64,000 nucleotides of DNA from Candidatus Zixiibacteriota bacterium (lineage in GTDB: Bacteria; Zixibacteria; MSB-5A5; GN15; JAAZOE01): assembly GCA_036480375.1 (NCBI GenBank), contig JAZGGI010000028.1, positions 62,001 to 126,000 on the forward strand. The letters are read 5' to 3'. Below the pieces are notes generated by a model. It searched no databases and was not told the DNA's origin. It saw nothing but the letters and a program-made list of their open reading frames with translations. A program made the position numbers and the translations under genes. Positions 14,990 through 54,878 of this stretch are shown here, piece by piece (the stretch's first letter is position 1; the number at the start of each line of letters is the position of its first letter).

Positions 14990-16633
14990 ATGAAAAACCC
15001 ATATCCTTTTTTACTGATTTGCCTGTTATTAACAGCAACTGCTTTTGCCGAGCCACCGAAAAACTTCACAACAAACCAAACCGCAATTATTGACAATACT
15101 ACCTTTATTGACGCCAATAAGATTTTAATGTTTGTAACCAATCATGGTAACATTGGGAGAGATCTTTCGGGTTATTTCGGGTATGATTACGGGACCTTTT
15201 TCCCGTATGACGGTAATCCTGATGACATCATCAATGGTAATCCGTCGGCTATCAGATCTCCTTTATATGCCGGCGGTTTATGGCTGGGCGGCGTGGATGC
15301 CTCGACCGGTGATACGGTGCTGGCGATTTCTGAATACGGCAGCGAATATGTTCCCGGACCGATGGACAATGGTACATTTATGGATGATCAATGGTATTAT
15401 CAAGTCTACAAATTATTTGGTGACTCTCTGGCATCTAACCCAAATCAGGACTATCTCGACTATATCAATTATGCCGATGAGCAAGGAGCTCCGCTTAACG
15501 ATAGCGATCAGCCTGAAATGATCGGCGATCAAATGTGCTGGGCCGTTTATAACGACGCTGACGCCGGCAAGCGCGGAGATGTGGATGGGGGTTTGACCGA
15601 CCCTATCGGAATCCAGGTAAAACAAACCGTATTCGCGTTTGATCAAATGGGGAGTTTGGGCAATACAATATTCTTAAGATTTCGCATTTATAACGAAGGC
15701 ACACGAAATTTGAATAATTTTTATATATCTATCTGGGCTGATCCTGATCTGGGCGGAGCCGGAGATGATTATGTCGGGTGCGACACGCTTAATGATATTG
15801 GTTTCTGCTATAATGCCGATGGTGATGACAACCACTATGCCCATACTCCACCGTGCCTGGGTATCAAGTTACTCCAAACTCCCTTGCGCCCCAGATTCAT
15901 CTCCGATCCTGATATTCCCGGACGGATGTGGGGGCAGACATACGCCGATTCAATCAACATTGGCATGGTATCATTTAATAAATATATCAACGGAACCGAT
16001 CCTGATAATTATAAAGAATCGTATTGGTACATGAACGGGCTCGATAAATTCGGGAATCCTTATCAATACAACAGCCAAACACTGCTCTATGTACATTCCG
16101 GTAATCCGGTTGCCGGTACCGGCGATCTCGATTTTTACCCTGCTGATCGCCGCTTCATGATGACGACCGGTCCTCTATCGTTTAATCCCGGTGATTCGAC
16201 GGAAATTATCGCTGCCTTAATAGTTGGCCAGGGTCCGGACAGATTGAATTCTATTTCGATTATGAAAAATATAGGCACCGTCGCACAGGATTTTTATGAT
16301 AATAATTTTGGAATTCCAACCGCAGTTGATGAAAATGTAAATTCGATGATTCCCGGACAATTCGCACTCAAACAGAATCAGCCAAATCCGTTTAATCCAG
16401 GGACAAATATTGAATTTTATCTTCCGCGAGCGGGATTTGTTGAAATGAAGATATACAACATACTTGGTGAATTGGTTGACGAACCGTTATCGAAACATTT
16501 GAACCCCGGCATACATAATGTTTATTGGGACGGAATTGATTCCAAGAACAAGCAATTGCCGTCGGGTATTTATTTTTATCAATTGAATTTCGGCAATGAA
16601 TCGCAAACGAAAAAAATGCTTTTGATGAAGTAA
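14990..16633 (+). CDS. Secreted protein with C-terminal FlgD/type IX-like sorting domain
   Basis: 547 residues with a signal peptide (PFLLICLLLTATAFA) and an ATG behind GGAAGG. The body (about 30-450) is rich in Gly, Asp, Asn and aromatic residues (YGTFFPYDGNPDDI, GRMWGQTYADS) and is typical of large extracellular proteins of FCB bacteria. I recognise no enzyme motif. The last 85 residues are a FlgD-like/type IX sorting domain: NQPNPFNPGTNIEF, then VEMKIYNILGE, LNPGIHNVYWDG, LPSGIYFYQL and a basic end. It is probably exported and anchored or released at the surface. A strong hairpin follows the stop. Confidence 0.8.
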   Translation: MKNPYPFLLICLLLTATAFAEPPKNFTTNQTAIIDNTTFIDANKILMFVTNHGNIGRDLSGYFGYDYGTFFPYDGNPDDIINGNPSAIRSPLYAGGLWLGGVDASTGDTVLAISEYGSEYVPGPMDNGTFMDDQWYYQVYKLFGDSLASNPNQDYLDYINYADEQGAPLNDSDQPEMIGDQMCWAVYNDADAGKRGDVDGGLTDPIGIQVKQTVFAFDQMGSLGNTIFLRFRIYNEGTRNLNNFYISIWADPDLGGAGDDYVGCDTLNDIGFCYNADGDDNHYAHTPPCLGIKLLQTPLRPRFISDPDIPGRMWGQTYADSINIGMVSFNKYINGTDPDNYKESYWYMNGLDKFGNPYQYNSQTLLYVHSGNPVAGTGDLDFYPADRRFMMTTGPLSFNPGDSTEIIAALIVGQGPDRLNSISIMKNIGTVAQDFYDNNFGIPTAVDENVNSMIPGQFALKQNQPNPFNPGTNIEFYLPRAGFVEMKIYNILGELVDEPLSKHLNPGIHNVYWDGIDSKNKQLPSGIYFYQLNFGNESQTKKMLLMK

Positions 16634-16642
16634 TATATTTTT

Positions 16643-16666
16643 GGAGGGGCGCATTTGCGCCCCTCC
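16643..16666 (+). terminator. GC-rich hairpin after the secreted-protein gene
   Basis: Perfect stem GGAGGGGCGCA-TT-TGCGCCCCTCC, 9 bp after the stop. It lacks a T-run on the plus strand, so it may be an RNA 3'-end protector or an interspersed palindrome rather than a classical terminator. Confidence 0.6.
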
Positions 16667-16779
16667 TATAATTCATTGACATTGGACTCATTTCGATATA
16701 CTCATAACAGGCAATCAGTATAGATTCTGTTATGCATCCTTGATGTATTCGGGCAAATTGAATATTAGGGGAGTTTGAA

Positions 16780-16917
16780 TTGAGATATATGATAGCGGTC
16801 ATTATCTGGTGTGCGCTAATATTCACTGCGGCTACGAGTCTGGCGGACGACGTCGTTTATTTGGTTAAGTATGTATTCAAAGACGGCGCTCCTCCCTTGG
16901 TTGGGTGTGCTAAGTAA
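16780..16917 (+). pseudogene. Collapsed secreted dockerin protein: signal peptide fused to half a dockerin repeat
   Basis: A 45-codon frame starts at TTG 16780, 6 nt after AGGGGAG. Residues 4-22 are a signal peptide (IAVIIWCALIFTAATSLA). It runs straight into DDVVYLVKYVFKDGAPP, the second half of the dockerin-like repeat that ends the 52806-54878 protein (GDAVFLINYVFKNGQVP). Everything normally between export signal and dockerin is missing, as if one internal deletion removed the body in frame. It may be a relic or, since the frame and ribosome site are intact, a tiny secreted peptide. Confidence 0.7.
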
Positions 16918-16982
16918 CGATTCGGTAACAAACCTCACTTGATATTTTATTTTTTGTTGGCGCACAGGACGTACGCCAACCA

Positions 16983-17040
16983 CGACAACTCAAGAGTTGT
17001 CGCTACAAAAATGATTCGGTGGCAACAACTCTCGAGTTGT
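16983..17040. repeat. ACAACTC...GAGTTGT palindromic repeat pair
   Basis: CGACAACTC-AA-GAGTTGTCG (16983-17002) and ACAACTC-TC-GAGTTGT (17025-17040) are two perfect hairpins sharing their stem sequence. They are part of the 536-bp gap 16634-17169, whose only other content is the dockerin relic and the hairpin at 16643. Confidence 0.7.
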
Positions 17041-17169
17041 CCTTGTGGTATGATTATTGCAATTACTAATGACTGATAGACTCCTTAGCGATTTTTTTTA
17101 ATTGCCCTCCCGCATATATTATTCGCACATTGAAATAACGAAAAAAACATTCAAAGCGGATGGAACTAT

Positions 17170-18564
17170 ATGGCGAAACTGACATTTCTGGGCGCGGCGG
17201 GGACTGTTACCGGATCGCGGCATCTCCTCGAAGTTGACGGCGCGCGCATGCTCATCGACTGCGGTATGTTTCAGGGCAAAAAAGAATATCGGATGAAAAA
17301 CTGGGAACCGTTCCCGGTCGATCCGGCTTCGATAGATAAAGTTCTCCTCACTCACGCCCACATCGACCACAGCGGTTATTTGCCCCGATTTGTCAAGGAG
17401 GGTTTTGTCGGGCAGGTGCATTGTACTCACGCCACCCGAGAACTGGTGCGGATACTCCTCAAAGACAGCGCTCATCTACAGGAAGAAGACGCCCGCTGGG
17501 CCAACAAAAAAGGATTTTCCAAACACAAACCGGCCTTGCCGCTTTTTGACCTCGACGATGCTAAACTGGCGATGAAACGGTTCAAACCGGTTCATTACGG
17601 CGATGCCGTTCCCTGCGGCGAAAACGGTCGTATAAAATTCCGCGACGCCGGACATTTACTGGGGTCATCGCTGGTCGATATTCGCGTCAAGAAAAACGGA
17701 CGGGCGCGGAAGATCCTGTTTTCCGGTGATTTGGGGCGAACCTCACGCCCGCTTCTGCGCGATCCGGTGCAGGTTTACAACGTCGATTATCTCGTTTTGG
17801 AATCGACTTACGGCGGCCGTCTGCATGAAAACGAACAGCCGTTTGAAGATCTGGCCGGAATCATAAACGAAAGCCGGGAACGGGGCGGCGTTCTTTTGAT
17901 CCCCGCCTTTTCGGTGGGACGTACGCAGACGATCTTATACGTTCTTCGCGAACTCGAGGAGCGCGGCTCCATTCCCGAAATGCCGGTATTTATCGATTCG
18001 CCAATGGCAATTGAGTCAACGACCGTCTTTGAGAAACGCATCGCCGATCTCGATCTCGAAAGCCGGCTTTTGACTATCCAGGGGAAAAATTTCATTCGCC
18101 CCCGCCATCTGCATCGATGCCGCACCCGGGTTAAATCAAAACAGATAAACGATATCAAAAATAACGCCATTATCATCTCTGCCAGCGGCATGGCCGTCGG
18201 CGGCAGAATTCTGCATCATCTCGTGCATCGCATGCCCAATCCGAATAACACGATATTGCTAATCGGCTACCAGGCCCAAGGAACCAGAGGAAGAAGCATT
18301 CAGGATGGCCATCCAACGATTAAAATTCACGGCCAAAAAATCCCTCTGAAGGCCAAAGTGGAAACGGTGACGGCTTTTTCGGGTCATGCCGATTATGAGG
18401 AAATATTGGCGTGGCTATTGGGATTCAACAGGCCCCCCGAAAAAGTGTTTTTGGTGCACGGCGAACCGGATTCGCAAAGACATATGGCTCAGGTCATCCG
18501 TCAGAAATTTAAATGGGATACCGCCATCGCCGAAGAAGGTCAGACGGTCGAGCTGGATATATAA
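17170..18564 (+). CDS. Metallo-beta-lactamase/beta-CASP nuclease (CPSF/YSH1-like)
   Basis: 464 residues, predicted cytoplasmic RNA-processing nuclease. The MBL zinc motif is THAHIDHSG (about 59-67) and the site is completed by His of DAGHLLGSS and Asp of FSGDLGR. The beta-CASP insert (about 180-380) has its motif A (ESTYGG), motif B (FSGHADYEE) and C (LVHGEPD), and a C-terminal RMMBL domain follows. This is the COG1236 group, related to the eukaryotic 3'-end processing factor CPSF73 and to RNase J, but shorter than RNase J. It is monocistronic with its own terminator. Confidence 0.9.
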   Translation: MAKLTFLGAAGTVTGSRHLLEVDGARMLIDCGMFQGKKEYRMKNWEPFPVDPASIDKVLLTHAHIDHSGYLPRFVKEGFVGQVHCTHATRELVRILLKDSAHLQEEDARWANKKGFSKHKPALPLFDLDDAKLAMKRFKPVHYGDAVPCGENGRIKFRDAGHLLGSSLVDIRVKKNGRARKILFSGDLGRTSRPLLRDPVQVYNVDYLVLESTYGGRLHENEQPFEDLAGIINESRERGGVLLIPAFSVGRTQTILYVLRELEERGSIPEMPVFIDSPMAIESTTVFEKRIADLDLESRLLTIQGKNFIRPRHLHRCRTRVKSKQINDIKNNAIIISASGMAVGGRILHHLVHRMPNPNNTILLIGYQAQGTRGRSIQDGHPTIKIHGQKIPLKAKVETVTAFSGHADYEEILAWLLGFNRPPEKVFLVHGEPDSQRHMAQVIRQKFKWDTAIAEEGQTVELDI

Positions 18565-34154: not shown

Positions 34155-35051
34155 TTACCTCAACTCCTGAATAAAACCGTTTTTCAGTCCAGCATTATAG
34201 AACATCTCAACGACCTTGTCAAATTCGGTTGCGGCGATTCTCTTCTTCAGGATATCATGTTCGGTCGCTCGATAGGCCGGGAAATATTGGCTCATCAAAC
34301 TGATATATATATCGGTGGAAATCTCATTGGCAAGAAAGTCAAAGATCTCTTTTGAGCCCGACAATCCGCCAGGCAAAACCAGATGCCTGATTAAAAGCCC
34401 GCGTTTCGCGATGCCGGAATCGTCAATTTCAAGATTGCCCACCTGCCGAAACATTTCCTTAATGGCGCTACGATTGATTTCTCTGTAATTAATCGCATTT
34501 GAACATTCGCGCGCGATTTCATTGTTATTGTACCGCATATCAGCCATATATATATCTATTATACCCTCGATCCTTTCAATCGTCTCCAATTTCTGATACC
34601 CTGAGCTATTGCAAACAATCGGGGTATTCAGGCCTCTTCGGCCTGCCAGTCCGAGAGCTTTGACAATATGACCGATAAAATGATCGGGTGTTACAAAATT
34701 AATATTATGCGCCCCTCGCTCCTGCAACGACATAATCTTTTCGGCCAGTTCTTCAATTTCCATTTCCGAACCGACCAATTGCTGACTGATGGGATAATTC
34801 TGGCAATATAAACATGACAGGCTGCATCCGGACAGGAATATAGTTCCGGAGCCGCAATTTCCGCTAATCGGAGGTTCTTCGCCAAAATGCAAATTACAGC
34901 TTGCGACACGTACTTTATCCGATGCGCCGCATTGTCCGTCGCTGGAAACGGTTCTGTCAACTCCGCATTCCTGGGGACATAATTCGCAGTTATCCAATTG
35001 CTCAAGAAGCGATTCGCCGATTTCAATTATTTTATCCAGGCTCTTTCTCAT
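34155..35051 (-). CDS. Radical SAM protein, PflX/COG1313-like activase
   Basis: 298 residues. The 4Fe-4S/SAM motif is CSLSCLYCQNY (Cys about 75, 79 and 82), preceded by an extra N-terminal cysteine set CELCPQECGV and GQCGAS. The GCSLSCLYCQN form and the layout fit the COG1313 (PflX) branch related to pyruvate formate-lyase activases. The target of PflX proteins is not known. It lies 4 bp upstream of the TPR lipoprotein gene and heads the unit that ends with pyrF. Confidence 0.85.
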   Translation of the reverse strand: MRKSLDKIIEIGESLLEQLDNCELCPQECGVDRTVSSDGQCGASDKVRVASCNLHFGEEPPISGNCGSGTIFLSGCSLSCLYCQNYPISQQLVGSEMEIEELAEKIMSLQERGAHNINFVTPDHFIGHIVKALGLAGRRGLNTPIVCNSSGYQKLETIERIEGIIDIYMADMRYNNNEIARECSNAINYREINRSAIKEMFRQVGNLEIDDSGIAKRGLLIRHLVLPGGLSGSKEIFDFLANEISTDIYISLMSQYFPAYRATEHDILKKRIAATEFDKVVEMFYNAGLKNGFIQELR

Positions 35052-52668: not shown

Positions 52669-52805
52669 TCATTAATTATTATTTCCTTGACAATATTTTT
52701 ATAATTGAGTACTATACCAGTGGGAAGGTATTTCGCATCTTACATCGCATATAGAATTAATATTGATTTACTACAAACTTCTTGCGGGGCTTTGGGGAGG
52801 TAATT

Positions 52806-54878
52806 ATGAGAACTCATTTTTCACAAATTATCCGGGTTGCGGTTATTTTAAGCGCATTAGTGTTTGTATTAAACATGGCGACACTTGCGCAATCCGCATC
52901 AGAGGAATTGGAACTCCGTGATCTTAGATTTCAAAGCCTGACCACTATTGGATTAACTATAACGCATGGGAATTATGCTTATTGCGCTACTGGTTATGGT
53001 TTGTTAATTCTTGATATTGAAGAAGTGTCTAATCCCAAAGTAAATTCGGCACTTTATATACCGGCTTTAGTGGGTCCGCATGACATTGAAACAAACGGTC
53101 AACATCTTTTTATTATTGGATCTGATGATGTGTTTGTAATTAATATTTCCAATCCTGCCGTTCCTTTTTTGGAATCCACTTTTAACCCCCATGGGTATAT
53201 TGGATTTGCCAAAGGCTCAATATTGGGCAACTTTTTATTGGTGTATGGCAGTGATGATATTGAAAAATGTTTTTTTGTCATTGACATTAGTAATCCTGAT
53301 TCATTATTTATTGAAACCAAATATGTAGTTGAAAGCACTATTCGTGATCTTATCGTATCTGATACTCTCGCATTCGTCACTGAAAAATCAAAGTTGGAGG
53401 TTTTTAATATCAGCGACCCAACCGCTCCTTATCCTGTGGGGGAATGCCTTGATTTACAGCACGTAACCACTTACTCCAAGCATATTTTCGCTATCAAGGA
53501 TACTACCATCTATGTTGTTTACAACGATACCCTGAAAATCCTGAATGCTAATTCGCCGGAAAATCCCTGTCCCATTGCAATAATTGATATATTCGACGGT
53601 GTTATAAATATTATAATCAATGGATCAATGCTCTTCGTGTATGAACTTGAAAACCATACAACTCATGTTTACAATATTGAAGATCCGTTGAACTCTCAAT
53701 TCGTATGCAAATTGGAAGGCTTATATATTTCATTATTTCATAACGAGAATCCAATAAGCATAGGCGGGACATTCAAGATATTGGATATTTCAGACATTGA
53801 AAATCCTGAGATAATAGGCAGTTATCAGACTACTTATACTATGCAGGATATCAAAGTCTCCGGAGATTTTGCTTATATTGCCGGCGATCATTTCCTATCC
53901 TTTGATGTATCCTATCCAAGATATCCCTATCCCAAATTGATAGGAGGTTTATATCTTGACGGCGCGGCTGTAATTGAAATCGTTGACCCCTATGCTTATA
54001 CTATCGATAATAATGGTACCTTAAAGATTGTAGATATTAATGATCCGGCGGCACTGGAATTGGCAGGGACTCTCGAAAATATTGGTACATATTGCACCGA
54101 TATTGGCATTTATGGCGATCATGCATATATTACGGCAAATTTGGATGGCATTCAAATTATCAATATCTCTGACCCATCCGCACCATTTATCGAAGGCAAT
54201 TATGATTTGCAGCATTCACAGGCAATTGATATCTCGGGTCATTATGCGTATGTCGATAATTTATATATTCTGGATTTATCGGCTCCGCTAAATCCAATTC
54301 TGAGCGGTAATTGCTATGTGCAATTTAATGTTATGGATATAGAAGTGATTGGAGATTATGCTTATGCCGCTATCGCCAATGTTGAACCCTATAACGGATA
54401 TATGGGAATTATTAATGTTGCCGATCCTACCGCTCCATTTGTAGAGACATATATTGAGACATCTACTGAAGGGAAAAATATTGCGGCCGCTGATGGGTTT
54501 GCATATTATATGGACTTTGACGGAATACATGCTTTTGATGTTTCCAATCCAGCAGAACCCGAACTATTCGGCCAGAAATCAGCGGTTTATAACGTCGCAA
54601 TTGATGCTAAAGATAGTTATTTATTTGCGCTATCCTCTTGGGGATTTGGGATGTCTGACGTAAATAGGCCTAATGATTTCTCCTGCGCCGACGCCAATAA
54701 TGACGGTACCACAAATATCGGAGATGCGGTTTTTCTCATAAATTATATATTCAAGGGCGGAGACACACCCAGTAACTGTGATGCCAATTGTGATGAGGGG
54801 TGCAACGTCGGTGACGCTGTATTTCTCATAAATTACGTATTTAAAAATGGACAGGTACCCTGTGAATATTGTAATTAG
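52806..54878 (+). CDS. Secreted LVIVD-repeat protein with dockerin-like C-terminus
   Basis: 690 residues, ATG behind GGGGAGG. The signal peptide (residues 5-28) ends near ATLAQS. Residues 40-620 are LVIVD-type beta-propeller repeats, each with a 'D/N-I-S-N/D-P-x-x-P' turn (VINISNPAVPF, NISDPTAPY, DVSNPAEPEL). The last 60 residues are a dockerin-like pair, DANNDGTTNIGDAVFLINYIF and DANCDEGCNVGDAVFLINYVFK (split here around the motif), with calcium-loop Asp/Asn positions. The module probably attaches the protein to a surface partner. No enzyme motif seen. Confidence 0.85.
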   Translation: MRTHFSQIIRVAVILSALVFVLNMATLAQSASEELELRDLRFQSLTTIGLTITHGNYAYCATGYGLLILDIEEVSNPKVNSALYIPALVGPHDIETNGQHLFIIGSDDVFVINISNPAVPFLESTFNPHGYIGFAKGSILGNFLLVYGSDDIEKCFFVIDISNPDSLFIETKYVVESTIRDLIVSDTLAFVTEKSKLEVFNISDPTAPYPVGECLDLQHVTTYSKHIFAIKDTTIYVVYNDTLKILNANSPENPCPIAIIDIFDGVINIIINGSMLFVYELENHTTHVYNIEDPLNSQFVCKLEGLYISLFHNENPISIGGTFKILDISDIENPEIIGSYQTTYTMQDIKVSGDFAYIAGDHFLSFDVSYPRYPYPKLIGGLYLDGAAVIEIVDPYAYTIDNNGTLKIVDINDPAALELAGTLENIGTYCTDIGIYGDHAYITANLDGIQIINISDPSAPFIEGNYDLQHSQAIDISGHYAYVDNLYILDLSAPLNPILSGNCYVQFNVMDIEVIGDYAYAAIANVEPYNGYMGIINVADPTAPFVETYIETSTEGKNIAAADGFAYYMDFDGIHAFDVSNPAEPELFGQKSAVYNVAIDAKDSYLFALSSWGFGMSDVNRPNDFSCADANNDGTTNIGDAVFLINYIFKGGDTPSNCDANCDEGCNVGDAVFLINYVFKNGQVPCEYCN

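What the first reader, a model, noticed from the sequence alone, without database searches (positions are those of the whole stretch)
16780..16917. Signal peptide joined directly to half a dockerin repeat
A clean ribosome site, TTG start, signal peptide and then the last half of a dockerin-like module make a 45-residue frame with nothing between. It fits an in-frame collapse of a large secreted protein. It may also be a minimal exported peptide able to occupy the dockerin's partner.
Basis: seen in the sequence. Interest (0 to 1): 0.55.

Follow-up and report, generated by a model that had tools for sequence, protein, structure and literature searches.

The report
Broken dockerin gene end behind signal
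A short frame that starts with a believable export signal and ends with the last bit of a dockerin docking module is most likely the leftover of a lost secreted-protein gene lying where the chromosome was rearranged, not a working mini-dockerin.

Summary
Window 16780-16917 is a 45-codon TTG frame with a ribosome site, a signal-peptide-like start, and residues 23-44 homologous to the second half of the SECOND dockerin repeat (E 8e-9 among 1922 window frames). That is about a third of a dockerin: the calcium loop and the whole first repeat are absent. The genome (relatives titled Candidatus Zixiibacteriota) has 98 Pfam dockerin matches and also other orphan dockerin ends that cannot be genes. 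In two family relatives the upstream secreted protein is followed by other genes and no dockerin trace, so the frame sits at a synteny breakpoint, next to two REP-type palindromes. 3 of 6 orphan ends noticed have such a palindrome within about 70 bases; 0 of 98 dockerin matches do within 200. Best reading: a dead remnant, the 5' end and last half-repeat of a dockerin-tailed secreted-protein gene (or of two genes) welded in a rearrangement scar. Promoter-like site, ribosome site and signal peptide survive, so a peptide may still be made, but it lacks what dockerins need to fold and bind. Side result: true mini-dockerins (signal plus complete dockerin) do exist, in a gene pair shared by two genera.

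The parts
14990..16633 (+). 547-aa secreted protein with C-terminal sorting-type domain; left side of the breakpoint
   Evidence: Por_Secre_tail 9.9e-07, CHU_C 1.6e-06; co-linear with Mrp in G001, homologues in G001 and G003
16632..16677 (+). inverted repeat / terminator-type hairpin behind the secreted-protein gene
   Evidence: arms 16632-16653 and 16656-16677
16676..16702 (+). promoter-like site TTGACA-15-TATACT
   Evidence: only match of TTGACAN{15,19}TATACT in the window, 0.01 expected; the standard scan (spacing 16-18) found none here
16768..16773 (+). ribosome-binding site GGGGAG, 6 bases before the TTG
   Evidence: read from sequence
16780..16845 (+). signal-peptide-like codons, residues 1-22 (MRYMIAVIIWCALIFTAATSLA)
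   Evidence: rule-based scan and shuffles
16846..16917 (+). dockerin repeat-2 helix and tail (DDVVYLVKYVFKDGAPPLVGCAK) and stop
   Evidence: profile E 8e-9; own-genome matches to residues 22-44
16887..16958 (+). dockerin end plus 3' non-coding stretch shared with the orphan dockerin end on contig C13
   Evidence: local score 56, maximum of 2000 shuffles 37; model R1 finds only these two places in the genome
16984..17001 (.). REP-type palindrome GACAACTCAAGAGTTGTC
   Evidence: C28:78984-79001
17024..17041 (.). second REP-type palindrome AACAACTCTCGAGTTGTC
   Evidence: C28:79024-79041
16634..17169 (.). synteny breakpoint interval: in G001 and G003 the secreted protein is followed by a 275-283-aa minus-strand gene and then a 298-299-aa frame (my reading: PurF) instead
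17170..18564 (+). beta-CASP / RMMBL nuclease; right side of the breakpoint
   Evidence: Beta-Casp 7.7e-34; its upstream neighbours differ in the relatives inspected

Best explanation
It is a dead remnant. The 5' end of a secreted-protein gene (promoter-like site, ribosome site, signal peptide) is joined in frame to the last half-repeat of a dockerin-tailed protein, inside a rearrangement scar marked by REP-type palindromes. I think the more likely route is a deletion inside one dockerin-tailed gene that lay there; the less likely is a join of two genes (first rival). Shown: the homology, its exact extent, the synteny break, the palindromes, other dead dockerin ends in the genome. Inferred: the deletion itself, its order relative to the rearrangement, and that any peptide made is non-functional.
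For: Dockerin homology stops exactly at the last calcium-loop aspartate (profile positions 13-32 of 33). 98 Pfam dockerin matches in the genome, all those over the cut-off in frames of 126 aa or more. Other orphan ends: C24:65280, C48:66540, C26:112348, C13 tail, C22 decayed repeat. In G001 and G003 the secreted protein is followed by another gene and no dockerin trace. REP palindromes within about 70 bases of 3 of 6 orphan ends, against 0 of 98 dockerin matches within 200. A signal-like start at a random junction is rare by my rule (5.5e-5), so the 5' end is probably a true one. An idle 45-codon frame stays open easily: 36-65% of simulated copies at 5% divergence.
Against: No intact parent of either half was found: residues 1-21 and the 5' flank have no convincing homologue in the genome. 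All expression parts look intact, which a long-dead gene need not keep. A promoter-like site rare by chance ends 77 bases upstream of the TTG. The nearest relatives compared are other genera, so the age of the join is unknown, and one-gene collapse is not separated from a two-gene join.
Confidence: 0.6

Rival explanations
1. A chimera: the rearrangement joined the start of an unrelated secreted-protein gene to the 3' end of a dockerin gene. No dockerin gene ever collapsed here; two fragments met. It is still a dead remnant.
For: The interval is a synteny breakpoint. C48 shows a dockerin end run into a different frame beside a gene fragment with an HTH_32 match, so such welds happen. The 5' part has no dockerin-gene homologue.
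Against: It needs an in-frame join within a residue or two of the signal cleavage point by luck; so does the deletion, so this does not decide.
Confidence: 0.27
2. A selected micro-gene: a secreted 23-residue peptide consisting of the cohesin-contact helix of repeat 2, acting as a decoy or regulator.
For: Promoter-like site, ribosome site, signal peptide and stop are intact. By my mapping onto the numbering in PMC4728124 the mature peptide holds contact positions 12, 18, 19, 22 and 23. Cohesin-like matches exist in the genome, 10.
Against: No calcium loop and no partner helix. PMC8063739 (passages) reports that binding in its complex needs residues from both helices. The C-terminal cysteine has lost the loop cysteine seen in many sister repeats. 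No fusion of this kind among the matches listed for 146 genomes.
Confidence: 0.05
3. A mobile unit: a dockerin 3' end captured by a REP composite element and copied around, cut back to different lengths at its 5' side.
For: Window and C13 share dockerin end, stop and non-coding stretch in register up to a REP palindrome; 3 of 6 orphan ends are beside REPs; a Y1 transposase gene lies beside the C26 orphan.
Against: Only two copies of the joint module in the genome and none convincing in 40 relatives (best E 0.07). Most of the 54 REP sites have no dockerin end.
Confidence: 0.07
4. Chance resemblance in non-coding DNA.
For: No trace at the orthologous place in G001 and G003; Pfam does not call it.
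Against: Profile E 8e-9 in the window; best own-genome dockerin-type match E 2.3e-4, and 86 own-genome matches besides itself up to E 10.
Confidence: 0.01

Closest known systems
Dockerin type I (Pfam PF00404)
   Same: Residues 23-44 match helix and tail of the second repeat of this genome's own dockerins.
   Different: No first repeat, no calcium loop, below Pfam detection.
Truncated bacterial pseudogenes / gene remnants in intergenic DNA
   Same: Partial domain at a synteny break, several similar dead ends in one genome.
   Different: This one keeps start, signal peptide and stop in one open frame.
Signal-plus-dockerin mini-proteins of this clade (C24:102689-103012 and G004 C256)
   Same: Exported frame whose only module is dockerin.
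   Different: Those have both repeats and calcium loops, score above Pfam's cut-off, and stand before a homologous partner gene in two genera.
Single-repeat dockerin Clocl_2271 of Clostridium clariflavum (PMC4582956, passages read)
   Same: A dockerin reduced to one repeat.
   Different: A whole repeat at the N-terminus; a legend seen there mentions a computational fusion of Clocl_2272 and Clocl_2271.

Membership tests
Dockerin type I (PF00404) | Score above Pfam's curated cut-off | tested here: not met
   No Dockerin_1 match
Dockerin type I (PF00404) | Two F-hand repeats | tested here: not met
   Profile positions 13-32 of 33 of one repeat only
Dockerin type I (PF00404) | Calcium ligands at loop positions 1, 3, 5, 9, 12 (positions as in PMC4582956) | tested here: not met
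   Only position 12 (Asp) present in the frame
Dockerin type I (PF00404) | Binds a cohesin | not testable with these tools
   10 cohesin-family matches in the genome; binding untested
Gene remnant (pseudogene) | Partial homology to an intact family with essential parts missing | tested here: met
Gene remnant (pseudogene) | Intact orthologue at the same place in a relative | tested here: not met
   G001 and G003 have other genes behind the secreted protein and no dockerin trace; breakpoint instead
Gene remnant (pseudogene) | No purifying selection on the frame | not testable with these tools
   No homologue of the whole fusion seen in the rows listed for 146 genomes
Sec-exported peptide | Charged n-region, hydrophobic core, small residues before cleavage (rule recalled, not from a call) | tested here: met
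   Home-made rule, 11 in the window against 1.0 per shuffle; not SignalP

The most novel reading that the evidence does not exclude
A REP-linked rearrangement made a new micro-gene: promoter, ribosome site and signal peptide now export just the cohesin-contact helix of a dockerin, a decoy peptide that competes for the many dockerin partners of this cell.
Probability: 0.05. Interest if true: 0.6.

Novelty: new member of a known kind. Interest (0 to 1): 0.2.

Why it matters
It shows how a dockerin-rich genome sheds dockerin genes: ends are left at rearrangement scars, some beside REP palindromes, and one of them happens to be an open, exportable frame. If such frames were ever used, they would be raw material for new secreted peptides. 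The true mini-dockerins found on the way are the better lead on dockerins that stand alone.

Tried and rejected
Chance similarity: rejected. A full-length protein at the same place in relatives: the upstream flank of the nuclease was inspected in 7 of the 26 relatives that matched it (with the own locus), and 41 nuclease loci from named genomes were scanned with the dockerin profile (several have short upstream flanks): 3 of 41 hold a dockerin frame at E 1e-4, all in frames of 391-827 aa, none a short orphan next to the nuclease. Mini-dockerins in relatives: short frames were checked at seven places. Five are cut by contig ends (L137, L139, L141, L142, L143); two (L136 in G002, L138 in G116) are internal orphan ends that I read as remnants, L138 with the frame closed just upstream. 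A frameshifted earlier dockerin part hidden in the signal-peptide DNA: looked at by eye only, no convincing case. DNA relatives of the 5' flank: none convincing in the genome (the only hit there is the terminator palindrome with itself). The module R1 in 40 relatives: best E 0.07, taken as nothing. Structure prediction was not run: the mature peptide would be 23 residues.

The orphan census is incomplete: the C22 case was met by accident and is missing. One search used five orphan ends (window, C13, C26, C24, C48), and the Fisher comparison printed (p 5.7e-5) used 3 of 5; with C22, whose nearest REP is hundreds of bases away, it is 3 of 6 against 0 of 98, about 1.1e-4 by hand. Distances for the 98 dockerin matches run from the end of the Pfam match, not from the stop codon. 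The 3' part of the window-C13 similarity beyond about 16960 resembles the REP composite elements on C16 and C23, so only 16887-16958 is counted; the coding part alone is not strong (6 of 2000 shuffles as good), the non-coding part alone 1 of 2000, both together 0 of 2000.

Full report
What is there. Window 16780-16917 encodes 45 residues from a TTG: MRYMIAVIIWCALIFTAATSLA followed by DDVVYLVKYVFKDGAPPLVGCAK (M for the TTG start). A GGGGAG ends 6 bases before the start. Just behind the terminator-type hairpin of the upstream gene (16632-16677) lies TTGACA-15-TATACT (16676-16702), the only match of that pattern in the window, 0.01 expected. A looser form, TTGACAN{15,19}TATAMT, has 2 matches against 0.06 expected. 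The standard scan with spacing 16-18 found no promoter in 16600-17200, and a 15-base spacing is short, so this is a hint only. My signal-peptide rule finds 11 starts with a ribosome site in the window's six frames, this one among them, and on average 1.0 in ten dinucleotide shuffles. From that, a signal-like start ending near a given random junction has a chance of about 5e-5. The rule is home-made and lenient about the exact cleavage point; the SLA|DD reading is mine.

The dockerin part. Pfam does not see it: this place is absent from the 98 own-genome Dockerin_1 matches and the scan of the frame finds no dockerin. A profile of 20 second repeats taken from the same genome does: E 8e-9 among 1922 frames of the window, positions 13-32 of 33. 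The only stronger frame in the window is a 703-aa protein at 52767-54875 with two repeats. In the genome-wide protein search the frame finds itself and 86 other matches up to E 10, mostly repeat ends of dockerins aligned to residues 22-44. So the module is reduced to the last helix and tail. By the ligand positions given in PMC4582956 (passages; 1, 3, 5, 9, 12) only the aspartate at 12 is left. By the contact positions in PMC4728124 (passages; 11, 12, 18, 19, 22, 23, a numbering that I map by the conserved aspartate) the mature peptide would keep 12, 18, 19, 22 and 23. In PMC8063739 (passages) binding needs residues from both helices. Lytle and Wu 1998, on both dockerin subdomains, I saw only as a title in a reference list (PMC4617052). 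The tail cysteine, in many sister repeats accompanied by a cysteine in the loop (one search list), is alone here.

Dead dockerin ends are common in this genome. Of the 87 matches, four lie in frames under 60 residues: this one, C24:65280 (44), C48:66540 (54) and C26:112348 (41). C24 has lost loop residues and has no signal peptide in its frame. C48 runs out of another frame beside a fragment with an HTH_32 match. C26 stands behind a Y1 transposase gene (Y1_Tnp 4.9e-08). A fifth, on C22, is a decayed repeat closed by stops; it was found by accident, so the list is not complete. A sixth, on C13, keeps only the tail of about nine codons, but shares with the window the tail, the stop and 40 bases behind it in register (score 56, best of 2000 shuffles 37); a sequence model of that stretch finds only these two places in the genome.

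REP-type palindromes. GACAACTCTCGAGTTGTC with up to two mismatches occurs at 54 distinct sites, and the control pattern read backwards at none. Two sites lie 67 and 107 bases behind the stop of our frame. Three of the six orphan ends have one within about 70 bases, and 0 of 98 dockerin matches within 200 (1 of 98 within 500). Whether the palindromes help to break genes or merely collect in dead DNA is not decided.

The place. The Mrp gene and the secreted protein stand together in G001 as in the window (Mrp 79% and secreted protein 46% identical). In G001 and G003 the secreted protein is followed, about 100 bases on, by a minus-strand gene of 275-283 residues and then a plus-strand frame that I read as PurF; there is no dockerin trace there (best E 0.72), and neither gene of G001 has a match in the 64-kb window. 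The nuclease stands on other contigs in these relatives and has other neighbours in those inspected. So 16634-17169 is a breakpoint, and the frame fills it.

How it most likely arose. A dockerin-tailed secreted-protein gene at the scar lost everything between signal peptide and last half-repeat; or the scar joined two genes. The in-frame join alone does not choose. The parent need not have been large: C24:102689-103012 encodes 108 residues that are signal plus complete dockerin. That the frame is still open says little: 36-65% of simulated idle copies stay open at 5% divergence and 16-41% at 10% (lower figures with indels).

Mini-dockerins. Complete ones exist: the C24 protein and a 109-residue one in G004 (Dockerin_1 2.5e-10), alike in sequence and each directly before a homologous 575-aa dockerin protein (55% identical over residues 16-574). 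These two are the only matches over nearly the whole 575-aa protein in the rows listed for 60 genomes (cut at E 1e-20). No signal-plus-half-repeat fusion like the window's was seen in the rows listed for 146 genomes (the list was cut, and seven short frames from it were checked).

Print. Searches for dockerin with Zixibacteria (0 papers), dockerin with truncated, signal peptide and pseudogene (2 papers, unrelated by title), and searches showed no description of such a frame in their listings; the library lacks most subscription journals. The organism name rests on the titles of named relatives (nearest, 68% in the nuclease, Candidatus Zixiibacteriota) and is an inference for the window.

Verdict. 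A correct observation of an ordinary thing: a remnant at a rearrangement scar. Remnant readings together (one-gene collapse 0.6, two-gene join 0.27) carry most of the weight. The micro-gene reading is not excluded but has little for it.

Noticed in passing
L217 (G000 C24:100000-104500), minus strand; G004 C256:1993-4143 (L215, L220): A gene pair in two genera: a signal-plus-complete-dockerin mini-protein (108-109 aa) directly before a 575-aa secreted dockerin protein. Stand-alone exported dockerins deserve their own look.
   Followed up: partly
L101 (G000 C26:109500-114500): Y1 (IS200-like) transposase gene followed by an orphan dockerin repeat end and a REP palindrome.
   Followed up: partly
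L103 (G000 C48:63500-70500), around C48:66540: Dockerin end in one open frame with DNA that on the other strand encodes a fragment with an HTH_32 match; the junction has the same ADD(A/V)VYL start as the window's frame.
   Followed up: partly
L100 (C16:83.8-84.1 kb) and L104 (C23:3.7-4.0 kb): Composite REP elements: palindromes of two types (GACAACTC.. and GACAACCC..) with a conserved spacer containing ATGATTGGGTGA and CGCTACA ends.
   Followed up: no
L218 (G000 C47:58500-60500): A 217-aa frame with a complete dockerin right behind the signal-like start and further sequence after it: an N-terminal dockerin.
   Followed up: no
window 34194-34222, minus strand: Perfect TTGACA-17-TATAAT promoter-like site, one of two such matches in the window against 0.06 expected.
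   Followed up: no
window 16703-16734: Short inverted repeat CATAACAG..CTGTTATG between the promoter-like site and the ribosome site of the frame (read by eye).
   Followed up: no
own genome and 39 or more relatives: Cohesin-family matches in 40 of 40 genomes tallied (39 over the cut-off), 10 matches in the own genome, so dockerin partners are plausible across this clade.
   Followed up: no
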